Positions 1 to 53,762 of a stretch of 64,000 nt of DNA are shown here, in pieces. The notes beneath the pieces were generated by a model. It was not told where the DNA came from and made no database searches. It worked only from the letters and a program-made list of their open reading frames with translations. The position numbers and the translations under genes were made by a program. Positions within the stretch are counted from its first letter, which is position 1. Each line of letters opens with the position of its first letter. Origin of the DNA: a virus; IMG/VR virus record IMGVR_UViG_3300037010_003037, positions 83,698 to 147,697 of that record; one strand, given 5' to 3'.

Positions 1-1
1 T

Positions 2-148
2 AATAACGGTGATGTTGCGAATTATGAGCTAGTAAAAATACGCGCAATTGAAGAATTAGAAGCTTTTGATAATGAATACGTGTATGACGTAATCATGGCT
101 GATGATAGCACGCCATGGTTTTTTGCAAATGGCGTGCTCGTTCATAAT
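2..148 (+). other. Intein C-terminal segment (blocks F and G) in the DNA polymerase
   Basis: The residues VYDVIMADDSTPWFFANG followed by VLVHN match intein block F and block G, with the penultimate His and terminal Asn needed for C-terminal cleavage. The next residue, Ser (codon 149-151), is the +1 nucleophile. A Pro-Trp pair occupies the place where block F commonly has a His before the aromatic residues. Whether the intein carries a homing endonuclease lies outside the window. Confidence 0.85.
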
Positions 149-49641: not shown

Positions 49642-50697
49642 ATGCAAGTACGCAATAAAGGTTCTTCACTGAAGAAGGTTGCGATGTTCACTGATATTCA
49701 TTTTGGTAAGAAGAATAATTCTATTCAGCACAATCAAGACTGTTTAGATTTTGTTACATGGTTTTGTTCAAAGGTTAAAGAAGAGCGTGATGTAAGTCAT
49801 GTTGTGTTCTTAGGTGACTGGTTTGAAAACAGAAATTCAGTGAACGTCATGACTATGAATTTTGCCTATGAAGCGCTGAAGCTTCTGAATGGTTTAAATG
49901 TTCCAATTTACATTATTATCGGCAACCATGATCTTTATCATCGCGAAAACAGAAAAGTCTTCTCAACAAAGGTCTTTGAACAGTTTGAGAATGTTACACT
50001 TGTAAATGAACCGACTGTAATTGATAACACTGTTCTAGTGTGTCCGTTTTTGTTCAAAAATGAATATTCAGAACTGGCCAAGTATTCCAAGCTCCCATAT
50101 TGGATGGGTCACTTTGAATTTCGTAACTTTGTTGTGACTGGATCTGATAGACGCATGGAACATGGCCCAGATCACAAACAGTTCAGTGAGCCTACATACA
50201 TTTTCTCTGGACATTTTCACAAACGTCAAGCAATTGACAATGTCGTTTATATTGGTAATGTTTTTCCCATGGACTATGGTGATGCTTGGGATGATGCACG
50301 TGGTATGTGCATTCTTAACACAGAAGATGATGATGTTACGTTTATTGATTGGGAAGACTGCCCAAAATATCGTAAAGTAAAATTGTCAGATGTAATTAGT
50401 GATAACGCTCCAATTTTTCCGTCAAAATGTAGAGTACGTTGTTTAATTGATATTGATATTGGATATTCTGATGCTCAAATCTTAAAAGAAGAAATGGTGA
50501 AACAGCTTGAATTAAGAGAATTTTCTCTTGAAGAAAACTTAAATGAGCGCAAGGATGCTATTGCTGGTGAAGATGTTCTGGAGAACTTTGATCTAAGCTC
50601 ACTTAATGATGCTGTGATCAAAATGCTTCAAACTGGCATATCAGGTACAGCCACAATTGATCCAGAACGTTTAGTAGACATTTACCAGCAATTATAA
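49642..50697 (+). CDS. 47: Recombination nuclease subunit gp47 (Mre11-like)
   Basis: The calcineurin-type phosphoesterase motifs are present in order: FTDIHFGKKNN, VVFLGDWFENR, IIIGNHDLYHR and FSGHFHKRQ. Length (351 aa) is near T4 gp47 (339 aa). With gp46 it forms the SbcCD/Mre11-Rad50-type complex that resects ends for recombination-dependent replication. A ribosome-binding AAGGTG precedes the start and only 2 bases separate it from gp55. Confidence 0.92.
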   Translation: MQVRNKGSSLKKVAMFTDIHFGKKNNSIQHNQDCLDFVTWFCSKVKEERDVSHVVFLGDWFENRNSVNVMTMNFAYEALKLLNGLNVPIYIIIGNHDLYHRENRKVFSTKVFEQFENVTLVNEPTVIDNTVLVCPFLFKNEYSELAKYSKLPYWMGHFEFRNFVVTGSDRRMEHGPDHKQFSEPTYIFSGHFHKRQAIDNVVYIGNVFPMDYGDAWDDARGMCILNTEDDDVTFIDWEDCPKYRKVKLSDVISDNAPIFPSKCRVRCLIDIDIGYSDAQILKEEMVKQLELREFSLEENLNERKDAIAGEDVLENFDLSSLNDAVIKMLQTGISGTATIDPERLVDIYQQL

Positions 50698-50774: not shown

Positions 50775-51038
50775 ATGAGTAAACCAGTTAATTTTAAACA
50801 ATTACAGATTCGAAATTTTTTGTCTTTCGGAAACAATCTTACATCAATTGACCTCACGCATTGTGGCTCAACACTAGTTATGGGAGAGAATGTAGACGCT
50901 AACAGTAACAACGGTGCTGGAAAATGTGTACAAGGTAAAACTCTTATAAAAATTCGAAATAAACGAACAGGAGAAATCCAGACCGTTTCAATTGGAGATT
51001 TTTTTGAGAGCTTACAAAAGCCTAAAGAAAAAAGTTGA
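50775..51038 (+). CDS. 46: gp46 (Rad50-like) N-terminal fragment fused to an intein N-segment
   Basis: Residues 1-50 are the start of a Rad50/SbcC ATPase (LQIRNFLSFGNNLTSIDL, ending SNNGAGK, the Walker A loop). Residues 51-87 switch to an intein N-segment: Cys51 begins CVQGKTLIKIRNK, matching intein block A. The ORF then stops at TGA 51036. In an uninterrupted protein the Walker A sequence would continue as GAGK-TT, and exactly TTIINALCYAL is found after the C-terminal intein part. So this ORF is the first half of gp46, joined only if the two intein pieces splice in trans or the stops are bypassed. Confidence 0.85.
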   Translation: MSKPVNFKQLQIRNFLSFGNNLTSIDLTHCGSTLVMGENVDANSNNGAGKCVQGKTLIKIRNKRTGEIQTVSIGDFFESLQKPKEKS

Positions 51039-51437
51039 TATATCTAAAACATTCATCTCAATAATAAAATGCACCAGCTTTCAGATATTGTAAATCGTAA
51101 GTTCACTGACATCATTGACATAGATGATTATGAGATTGAGACGGACACAGGGTGGGTACCAGTTACACATCTTTGCAAAACAATCCCATATGATGTTTGG
51201 CAAATTGAGACAATAAATGGGTCAAAATTAGAATGTGCTGATGATCATATTTTGTTCACAGCAGATCTAAAGCAAGTTTTTGCTAAAGATCTACATGTAG
51301 GCGATTTGGTTTATACTAGAAATGGACCTCTTCCCATCAGCAAGATTCAAAAAACTGAACGTGTTGAGCAAATGTTTGACGTGCAAGTTGATCACCATAA
51401 TCATAGATTCTGGTCAGGTGATTATCTTTCGCATAAT
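50925..51437 (+). other. Interrupted mini-intein in the Walker A motif of gp46
   Basis: The inserted segment runs from Cys (50925) to Asn (51437) and is 513 bases, a multiple of three. It has block A (CVQGKTLIKI), block B-like (GSKLECADDHILFT), and blocks F/G (MFDVQVDHHNHRF, ending LSHN) with Thr at +1. No endonuclease domain is present. Two in-frame stops, TGA 51036 and TAA 51045, break it between block A and block B. Confidence 0.82.
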
Positions 51438-53045
51438 ACTACGATCATTAACGCGCTGTGTTACGCTCTATACAACAAACCTTTTGACAATATTTCACTT
51501 CAACGACTGATTAACTCTACCAACAACACTAAGAATACCTTGATGGAAGTTAGATTAGTGTTTAGCAAAGGTGATGATGAGTTTGAGGTATATCGTTGTC
51601 GTGGTGAAACATTCAATATTCAAGTCTATATGAATGGAGAGGACATCACCCTTGACAGTGTTGCTGAAAATGACAAGCTTGTAGAAGAGCTAATTGGTAT
51701 AAGCTATGAGCTCTTTACGAAGATTATTATCTTTTCCGGAAATTCCATTCCGTTTCTGATGATGCCAGTTTCACAGCAACGTCAGCAGATTGAAGAATTG
51801 TTCAACATTACTCTTCTCACAGAGAAGGCTGTTAAGCTTAAAGAAATCATAAAGGCAACTGAGAACAGTATTTCAATTCAAGAAGCTGTTATTCGTGAAC
51901 AAGAAGCTGCGGTGAATCTGTATAATAAACAACTAAAGGACGCAGAAAACCGAGTTGCTAAATGGGAGTCTGATAGAAACGCACAAGTCATAAGTCTTCG
52001 TGAACAACTTCAACTCATGCAAACGGTTGACATTGAAGTTGAGAAAGAGCTTCATGTTTTAACTGCCGCGCTAAAGGAAGAAGAAAACACCTTGCAACAC
52101 AAGCTAAGTAGTGCTAAGAAGGATAAAGTGACAATTTCTGCAGAGATTAAGAAGTTATCAGACGAACTTGTACACTTATTAGAAGATAAATGCCCTTACT
52201 GCTTACAACAATATGCTGGCGCGGCTGAGAAGTTAATTGAAAAACAAGATCTTCTCGAGCAAAAAAAGACTAAACTTGTAAGTCTTGAGGAAATCATCAC
52301 GACTACATCAGCTGAAGTTGCAGAACTAGTTGATCAGCGCCTGCGAGCTGCCAAGCTTATGAAGTTTTCAAGCCTTGCTGATGCTGTACGAGCAGAATCT
52401 TCTGCACAAACAGCTCAACAACGAATTGATGAATTATTGAACACTGTTAACCCGCACAGTGAAGCGCTTCAAGCTTTGCGTGAGAGCGCTGTTAAAGAAG
52501 TTGACTACGCTCAGTTAGATTTACTTAAGAAGGATTTGGATCATCAGCAGTTTCTGTTGAAATTGCTTACAGATAAAAACTCATTCATCCGGCGTCGAAT
52601 TATCCAAAAAACAATTCCATTTCTAAACAATCGTCTAATCCATTATACTAAAGAGCTTGGACTTCCACATGTTGTCATGTTTGATGATGATATGAGCTGT
52701 ACCGTATCTGAGTATGGTCGAGAACTTGATTTTGGTAACTTGTCTAGTGGTGAAAAGAAACGAGTAAATCTTTCATTATCACTTGCTTTTAGAGATGTTC
52801 TTCATCATCTGCACTCAAAGGTAAATTGTTTGTTTATTGACGAGATAGATGCATCACTCGATAGTTCTGGAGTTGAAAATGTCTTTAGATTATTAAAAAA
52901 TAAATCTCGTGATGAAGGGCTTGGACTCTGGATAATCTCACATAGACCAGAAGCTATTGGTCGATTCGACCGTTCAGTAATTGTTCGCAAAGAGAATGGG
53001 TTTAGTCGTATCGTATCTGAAGATGGAGATGAGTTTGAAGAATAA
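51069..53045 (+). CDS. 46: gp46 (Rad50-like) C-terminal fragment preceded by an intein C-segment
   Basis: Residues 1-123 are the rest of the intein, ending SHN. From Thr124 the frame is the remaining Rad50-like protein: TTIINALCYALYNK after the Walker A lysine, a coiled coil with the CPYC zinc hook (about 52191), the ABC signature LSSGEKKRVNLSLS, Walker B LFIDEIDASLD and the SHRPEA switch. It starts at ATG 51069, in the same frame as the upstream ORF but beyond two stops; no Shine-Dalgarno is visible, so re-initiation may be used. Gene 46 is important for T4 recombination, so some route to full protein is expected. Confidence 0.85.
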   Translation: MHQLSDIVNRKFTDIIDIDDYEIETDTGWVPVTHLCKTIPYDVWQIETINGSKLECADDHILFTADLKQVFAKDLHVGDLVYTRNGPLPISKIQKTERVEQMFDVQVDHHNHRFWSGDYLSHNTTIINALCYALYNKPFDNISLQRLINSTNNTKNTLMEVRLVFSKGDDEFEVYRCRGETFNIQVYMNGEDITLDSVAENDKLVEELIGISYELFTKIIIFSGNSIPFLMMPVSQQRQQIEELFNITLLTEKAVKLKEIIKATENSISIQEAVIREQEAAVNLYNKQLKDAENRVAKWESDRNAQVISLREQLQLMQTVDIEVEKELHVLTAALKEEENTLQHKLSSAKKDKVTISAEIKKLSDELVHLLEDKCPYCLQQYAGAAEKLIEKQDLLEQKKTKLVSLEEIITTTSAEVAELVDQRLRAAKLMKFSSLADAVRAESSAQTAQQRIDELLNTVNPHSEALQALRESAVKEVDYAQLDLLKKDLDHQQFLLKLLTDKNSFIRRRIIQKTIPFLNNRLIHYTKELGLPHVVMFDDDMSCTVSEYGRELDFGNLSSGEKKRVNLSLSLAFRDVLHHLHSKVNCLFIDEIDASLDSSGVENVFRLLKNKSRDEGLGLWIISHRPEAIGRFDRSVIVRKENGFSRIVSEDGDEFEE

Positions 53046-53177: not shown

Positions 53178-53762
53178 ATGAAAAAATCACAACAAAAAGG
53201 TGGTGATGAAAATTTATCTGTCACTAAAAGAAAACGTCGTCCTGGTATGGGCAAAGCAAAGGGAAATAGCTTTGAAAATATAGTTGCTAAAAAACTTACC
53301 GCAGCTTTAACACCACTCAAATTCATCAGAACACAAGGTTCAGGTGCTAGAGTTGGTGGAAAGAATTTTGAAACTATTGGTCAAATGTTTGGCGAGGATG
53401 CACTTAAGCTCTTCGTCGGCGACGTAGTTCCTGTAAATGAAAAAGATTCAGGAGTGGTGTTTAACTTCTCAATAGAGTGCAAATCATACGCAAAATCTGA
53501 TAGTTTTGAAACGATGGTCGCTGGTAATGCGAACATTTTCAAGTGGATTCATGAAGCTATTGACGACGCAGCGAAGGTTAATAAAGTTCCTTTACTTATT
53601 TTCAAGTGGAACCGCTCTCCTATCTATGTCGCCATGTTACATGGTGATAATATTATGCATCAACCACGCATTAGTTTATCTCAAAATGGGTGTATAATTG
53701 ATATCTTTTACTTGGATGATTTACTTCCATCACAAAATTTTTGGATTACTAATAAAGAATAA
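53178..53762 (+). CDS. PD-(D/E)XK nuclease, Holliday-junction-resolvase-like (194 aa)
   Basis: The basic N-terminus is followed by GNSFENIVAKKL (catalytic Glu), RTQGSGARVGG, then FVGDVVPV (Asp) and FSIECKSYA (E-x-K). This order is that of archaeal Hjc/phage resolvase-like PD-(D/E)XK enzymes. The late promoter in front is consistent with a packaging-stage resolvase, the job done in T4 by the unrelated endonuclease VII (gp49), which I do not see in the window. That functional replacement is an inference. Confidence 0.7.
   Translation: MKKSQQKGGDENLSVTKRKRRPGMGKAKGNSFENIVAKKLTAALTPLKFIRTQGSGARVGGKNFETIGQMFGEDALKLFVGDVVPVNEKDSGVVFNFSIECKSYAKSDSFETMVAGNANIFKWIHEAIDDAAKVNKVPLLIFKWNRSPIYVAMLHGDNIMHQPRISLSQNGCIIDIFYLDDLLPSQNFWITNKE

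What the first reader, a model, noticed from the sequence alone, without database searches (positions are those of the whole stretch)
50925..51437. Candidate naturally split intein in the Walker A loop of gp46, broken before block B
Seen: gp46 is in two ORFs in the same frame (50775-51038, 51069-53045). The first ends with a 37-residue intein N-segment starting at Cys; the second begins with a 123-residue segment ending HN, then Thr. Exteins join as GAGK-TT, a normal Walker A. TGA 51036 and TAA 51045 stand between. Known: most natural split inteins break where the endonuclease would sit (between blocks B and F); a few phage-derived ones (AceL-TerL type) have short N-fragments. Inference: this is an atypically split intein with a 37-residue N-piece in a recombination gene, or a cis mini-intein recently broken by stops. 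Intact blocks and exteins favour function.
Basis: partly seen in the sequence, partly recalled or inferred. Interest (0 to 1): 0.88.

Follow-up and report, generated by a model that had tools for sequence, protein, structure and literature searches.

The report
Split intein in phage gp46 gene
A large phage makes its DNA-recombination ATPase gp46 in two halves, each carrying part of a self-splicing protein (a split intein) that is predicted to join them; the split is old and shared by many environmental phages, so it is not a recent mutation, but it is one more example of a known class of unusually split inteins.

Summary
gp46 is two same-frame ORFs (50775-51038, 51069-53045). The first ends in a 37-aa intein N-piece (Cys1, 50925); the second begins with a 123-aa C-piece ending LSHN, then Thr. 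The insertion lies exactly between Lys and Thr of Walker A; 34 of 37 related gp46 loci covering the site are uninterrupted there. The same stops occur in two other assemblies. A divergent gp46 (L031) has the same split with a homing endonuclease gene (HEG) between the halves. IMG/VR holds at least 463 relatives; of 81 distinct N/C pairs read, all end LSHN, 79 read GK^C as called, and 77 are split, usually at the same position. Both pieces are under purifying selection in split relatives. AlphaFold (pLDDT 91.5) gives an intein fold with the break in a loop after helix 1; best PDB match VidaL. Best explanation: a naturally, atypically (S2) split class 1 intein that trans-splices gp46, its HEG probably lost. 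'Recently broken' is rejected. Splicing itself is untested. It is a new member of a known kind (AceL/GOS-TerL, Cat, VidaL). The family is the more interesting part: only at Walker A K^T/S, in five ATPase families, with the HEG in the split gap and visible HEG deletion scars.

The parts
49642..50697 (+). gp47 (SbcD-like partner of gp46), context
   Evidence: PHROG 100 SbcD-like E=9.1e-64; Metallophos
50775..51038 (+). gp46 N-ORF: N-extein plus intein N-piece, 87 aa, stop TGA
50775..50924 (+). gp46 N-extein (50 aa), ends NNGAGK (Walker A up to Lys)
   Evidence: PHROG 77 positions 293-333
50925..51035 (+). Intein N-piece (37 aa, Cys1, block A, helix 1)
   Evidence: aligned with N-pieces of the family; AlphaFold pLDDT 97-98 over residues 1-30
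51036..51038 (+). TGA stop of the N-ORF
   Evidence: identical in L002 and L003
51039..51068 (+). 30-nt gap; no endonuclease gene and no detectable endonuclease scar
   Evidence: sister L031 has a gap of about 1.06 kb with an endonuclease frame; scar test inconclusive
51045..51047 (+). Second in-frame stop TAA, inside the gap
51069..53045 (+). gp46 C-ORF: intein C-piece plus C-extein, 658 aa
51069..51437 (+). Intein C-piece (123 aa; blocks B, F and G, ends LSHN)
   Evidence: 74 related loci; alignment A2; fold matches VidaL E=2.8e-10
51438..53042 (+). gp46 C-extein (535 aa; Thr+1, CPYC hook, signature, Walker B)
   Evidence: PHROG 77 positions 334-955, E=1e-80

Best explanation
A naturally split class 1 intein with an atypical (S2) break interrupts phage gp46 between Lys and Thr of the Walker A loop. 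gp46 is translated as two proteins. The 37-aa N-piece docks onto the 123-aa C-piece to complete the intein fold. Cys1 takes over the N-extein as a thioester, it is passed to Thr+1, the terminal Asn cyclises, and the two gp46 parts are joined as NNGAGK-TTIINAL, restoring a working Walker A. Neither half alone should form the ATP site, so gp46 function depends on splicing. The element descends from split inteins with a free-standing homing endonuclease gene in the gap; here that gene is absent and was probably deleted. Shown: sequence, position, conservation, family, selection in relatives, predicted fold. Inferred: the splicing chemistry, that both halves are made, and the loss of the endonuclease gene in this lineage.
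For: Exact Walker A insertion with 34 empty-site homologues. Same split in a divergent gp46, L031, with homologous start Met and an endonuclease frame between. 81 distinct N/C pairs: all LSHN with +1 T/S, 79 with GK^C as called, 77 split. The window pairs with L031 (as L061) at 99/91 support. dN/dS about 0.1-0.26 for both pieces in split pairs with enough changes. AlphaFold pLDDT 91.5, low confidence mainly in the loop of the split, best PDB match VidaL; profile hits gp41-1, VidaL, CatC. Identical in further assemblies. One gp46 copy. Joined exteins keep the gp46 motifs.
Against: No splicing experiment. The C-ORF has no Shine-Dalgarno-like motif, so its translation is assumed. The window and L031 intein pieces are divergent (C-piece 47% identical). 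Selection was measured in relatives, not in the window's own lineage, whose copies are identical.
Confidence: 0.9

Rival explanations
1. A contiguous (cis) mini-intein recently broken by two stop codons; gp46 is now a pseudogene or crippled.
For: The gap is short and in frame, and contiguous relatives exist (L107, L123, L125, L192; Ackermannviridae TerL).
Against: The nearest relative L031 is split at the same place and the window pairs with it at 99/91. The C-ORF begins with a Met shared by split relatives. All splicing and gp46 motifs are intact. The same state is seen in several assemblies.
Confidence: 0.04
2. Translational readthrough of TGA and TAA makes a contiguous precursor that splices in cis.
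For: Same frame; the read-through linker would be about as long as in contiguous relatives.
Against: Two stops within 12 nt; both codons are ordinary stops in this phage; other split relatives have gaps of about 1 kb with another gene, so readthrough cannot serve the family.
Confidence: 0.03
3. The two halves work together without ligation (gene in pieces), the intein being a passenger.
For: Gene-in-pieces proteins that work unligated are known in phages (a ribonucleotide reductase gene split by an endonuclease, cited in PMC10448857).
Against: The break is inside the P-loop between Lys and Thr, which must be continuous to bind ATP. Residues needed only for ligation (Cys1, HN end, +1 T/S) are nearly invariant over 81 pairs.
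Confidence: 0.03

Closest known systems
AceL-TerL, GOS-TerL and the consensus Cat intein (atypically, S2-split inteins)
   Same: Break after helix 1 and before block B; short N-piece (25, 37 and 30 aa, against 37 here); Cys1 in AceL and Cat; phage-type extein (PMC13014065, PMC11766414). Profile matches CatC at E=6.9e-6.
   Different: Extein is gp46, not TerL; +1 is Thr rather than Cys; C-piece 123 aa against 104-115; sequences only remotely alike.
VidaL (atypically split, PDB 6vgv)
   Same: Best fold match (E=2.8e-10, TM 0.83 by target length) and close profile match (4.1e-10); short N-piece.
   Different: VidaL is split earlier (S1, 16 aa) and only about 20% identical.
gp41-1 (phage split intein)
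   Same: Best profile match among solved structures (1.1e-11).
   Different: A canonical split intein; here the break lies near the N-terminus.
Fractured genes (Dassa et al. 2009: split intein with a free-standing endonuclease between the halves)
   Same: Most relatives, including sister L031, have this arrangement.
   Different: The window itself has no endonuclease gene in its 30-nt gap. The 2009 paper could not be read here.
Contiguous TerL Walker A inteins of Ackermannviridae (Kuja, VP-1; CBA120 more distant)
   Same: Homologous intein at the same K^T site.
   Different: Contiguous, with a short linker in place of the gap; extein is TerL.

Membership tests
Class 1 intein | Cys/Ser at residue 1, block B and F His, C-terminal His-Asn, Cys/Ser/Thr at +1 | tested here: met
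   Cys1, ADDH, HNHRF, LSHN, Thr+1; conserved in the family
Class 1 intein | HINT fold | tested here: met
   AlphaFold pLDDT 91.5; the listed best PDB matches are inteins or intein-like domains
Class 1 intein | Precise insertion, with uninterrupted homologues | tested here: met
   34 empty sites
Naturally split intein | Two ORFs, each extein plus intein piece, kept by selection | tested here: met
   ORFs; 77 split pairs; purifying selection in split relatives
Naturally split intein | Protein trans-splicing | not testable with these tools
   Needs expression of both halves
Atypically (S2) split intein | Short N-piece, break after helix 1 and before block B | tested here: met
   37 aa; helix 23-30 then the low-confidence loop holding the split; definition from PMC13014065
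Atypically (S2) split intein | Homology to AceL/GOS-TerL/Cat | tested here: inconclusive
Fractured gene with endonuclease | Free-standing endonuclease gene between the halves | tested here: not met
   30-nt gap; met in sister L031. A search of the own record with the L031 endonuclease found nothing, without a positive control

The most novel reading that the evidence does not exclude
The window is an endonuclease-less end state of a lineage found only in P-loops, which has moved among the Walker A K^T/S sites of at least five ATPase families (gp46, TerL, DnaB/gp41-type helicase, ClpX-like and Clp protease-type ATPases). In it the atypical S2 split is the niche of a free-standing homing endonuclease gene, and repeated deletion of that gene gives either a minimal split intein or a re-fused contiguous intein. 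That would give a simple origin for atypically split inteins and show that the split state is reversible.
Probability: 0.55. Interest if true: 0.65.

Novelty: new member of a known kind. Interest (0 to 1): 0.5.

Why it matters
gp46 was not found as a split-intein host in the papers held, so this adds a recombination ATPase to the list (absence from those papers is weak evidence). More useful is the family behind it: 77 distinct natural split pairs read here, with N-pieces of about 32-57 aa and near-invariant splicing residues. It is a source of split inteins with short N-pieces for protein ligation, and a set in which endonuclease loss, maintenance of the split and re-fusion can be compared. 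Because splicing restores the P-loop, the intein could in principle gate recombination during infection; that is speculation.

Tried and rejected
Stop-codon recoding: rejected, TGA and TAA are ordinary stops. Second intact gp46: none in the record. Assembly error: unlikely. Endonuclease scar in the window gap: not detectable. A PSSM of endonuclease C-termini gave p=0.20 ungapped and 0.005 with a free one-codon gap, but phmmer gave E=0.33 while the reversed control gave 0.055, so it is not claimed. Alignments A4-A6 misplaced the C-pieces and were not used. The GOS-TerL paper and Dassa 2009 are not held. Literature searches for a gp46 split intein found none.

Full report
1. OBSERVATION. The sequence is as described. 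gp46 is read from two ORFs in one frame: 50775-51038 (87 aa, ends TGA) and 51069-53045 (658 aa). A TAA stands in frame at 51045-51047. The first ORF ends with CVQGKTLIKIRNKRTGEIQTVSIGDFFESLQKPKEKS (37 aa, 50925-51035). The second starts with 123 aa ending LSHN (51069-51437). Joining the flanks gives NNGAGK|TTIINALCYAL. In a scan of IMG/VR with the joined gp46, 34 of 37 loci that cover this place are uninterrupted exactly there. The other three are two assemblies with the window's own gp46 (L002, L003) and one divergent relative, L031.

2. NOT AN ARTEFACT. L003 is identical to the window over 10,268 nt. L002 is 99.84% identical over about 7.5 kb, differs elsewhere, and has the identical gp46. 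TGA and TAA end 11 and 32 of the 43 chosen ORFs of at least 100 aa in the window, at 95% coding density. The record (147,697 nt; the window is its last 64 kb) has only one gp46. The exteins are whole: PHROG 77 (SbcC-like) matches both sides, the N-part up to profile position 333 and the C-part from 334. The CPYC hook, LSSGEKKR, LFIDEID and SHR motifs are present. gp47 lies just upstream.

3. THE SPLIT IS OLD. L031 (IMGVR_3300045911_000368) carries the same insert at GSGK|C...LSHN|TT in a gp46 about 54% identical to the query. Its N-ORF stops at 1066 and its C-ORF starts at ATG 2126 with MQELSELIRRKFSDI (window MHQLSDIVNRKFTDI). Between them is an open frame for an endonuclease-like protein of about 380 aa. 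I read 81 distinct N/C pairs. All end LSHN and have T (57) or S (24) at +1. In 79 the automatic call gives GK directly before Cys1; L197 is called one residue off and L072 has a truncated N fragment. 77 are split and 4 contiguous. In 61 of the 77 split loci the nearest ATG lies at the same place. In a tree of 53 C-pieces the window and L031 (as L061) pair with support 99/91. The contiguous TerL inteins of isolated Ackermannviridae fall near the midpoint root, on long branches, and one contiguous form (L107) is nested among split ones.

4. BOTH PIECES ARE UNDER SELECTION IN RELATIVES. For close pairs that are both split, dN/dS is about 0.1-0.2 in the C-piece and about 0.13-0.26 in the N-piece (e.g. 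L047/L054, L057/L058, L048/L049, L052/L089). A few very close pairs have too few changes to tell, and the N-piece of L051/L055 has dN about equal to dS. In some pairs the intein is much closer than the extein (L051/L055: C-piece dS 0.12, extein 1.60; L048/L059: 0.07 against 0.77), as expected if the element moves by homing or recombination.

5. FOLD. AlphaFold2 on the read-through 171-mer (stops written as W and Q only to make one chain) with 70 aligned rows gives pLDDT 91.5 and pTM 0.84. The N-piece forms two strands and helix 23-30. Confidence drops in the loop around the split, and at the very C-terminal end. The best PDB match is VidaL (E=2.8e-10), followed by other inteins. By sequence profile the nearest solved structures are gp41-1, VidaL and CatC. 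The break is therefore of the S2 type of AceL-TerL and GOS-TerL, whose N-pieces are 25 and 37 aa (PMC13014065, PMC11766414).

6. HOW IT LIKELY WORKS. By known class 1 chemistry the N-piece docks, Cys1 forms the thioester, the N-extein is transferred to Thr+1, Asn cyclises, and the two gp46 halves are joined across the P-loop. This is inference from conservation. With the Walker A loop interrupted, the unligated halves should be inactive. The least certain step is translation of the C-ORF. No Shine-Dalgarno-like motif precedes it, whereas 26 of 44 C-ORFs in the family set have one, often within endonuclease codons. The leader is A-rich and weakly structured, and re-initiation after the TGA 30 nt upstream is plausible. 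SD-like motifs precede only 17 of 38 long ORFs in the window (chance 15%).

7. THE ENDONUCLEASE GAP. In most relatives the gap holds a frame of about 350 aa. 46 of the 47 longest gap frames link into one cluster; the exception (L105) is a short-gap locus whose longest frame is part of the C-ORF. Their C-terminal parts resemble either a Vsr-like nuclease (MTES_1575) or GIY-YIG (T5orf172), both below Pfam's cut-offs. The endonuclease C-terminus overlaps the start of the C-ORF in another frame (read). Several loci show deletion scars. L129 (split, short gap) joins endonuclease residues 1-28 to 353-372 (E=4.6e-14). L125 (contiguous) joins 61-93 to 323-335 (4.4e-8). L192 (contiguous) shows the same weakly (0.003). 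So endonuclease loss recurs and can end in a minimal split intein or in a contiguous one. The window is of the first kind, but its gap shows no detectable scar, so loss there is inferred from its sister only.

8. SITE. Every family member read sits at Walker A K^T/S. Pfam and PHROGs name five extein families: gp46/SbcC, TerL, DnaB-like helicase, a ClpX-like AAA protein and a Clp-type ATP-dependent protease. K^T is a known 'classic' P-loop intein site, and about 70% of inteins lie in ATP-binding proteins (PMC5050341), so the site alone is not new. One mostly split lineage spread over five families at that one site was not found in the papers held; this was not searched exhaustively.

9. VERDICT. 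Real, and a new member of a known kind. Interest is moderate for this locus and higher for the family.

Noticed in passing
G000:C1:83378-83845, upstream of and into window 1-148 (+): A second intein in the same genome: a contiguous mini-intein in DNA polymerase B at the YGDTD^S site.
   Followed up: partly
L094, L096 (IMG/VR TerL contigs): TerL genes that appear to carry three inteins each: the split one at Walker A, one at Walker B (CAFLYLDE) and one further on (CQFIGSSGTLISG).
   Followed up: no
Gap frames of L045, L046, L047, L053, L075, L084 and others: The gap endonucleases share a middle region but end in different nuclease domains (Vsr-like or GIY-YIG), as if the catalytic part had been swapped.
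   Followed up: partly
L125, L129, L192: Deletion scars of the endonuclease gene: fused N- and C-terminal endonuclease remnants in another frame, in one split and two contiguous inteins.
   Followed up: yes
L051 against L055; L048 against L059: Intein C-piece far more similar than the adjoining gp46 extein at synonymous sites, pointing to recent homing or recombination.
   Followed up: partly
L053 3873-4979: The TerL C-ORF of this contig runs into a SegE/GIY-YIG homing endonuclease-like region after the Walker A intein.
   Followed up: no
L115 (Kuja), L116 (CBA120), L117 (VP-1): TerL genes of isolated Ackermannviridae hold a contiguous intein at Walker A, annotated simply as terminase.
   Followed up: partly
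window 53178-53762: Phage PDDEXK endonuclease (PF24608, E=4.8e-25) directly downstream of gp46.
   Followed up: no
L203-L214: Relatives of this intein also occur in contigs binned to bacterial MAGs (Clostridia, Bacteroidales, Erysipelotrichales and others), probably phage sequence; L203 is a split helicase form.
   Followed up: partly
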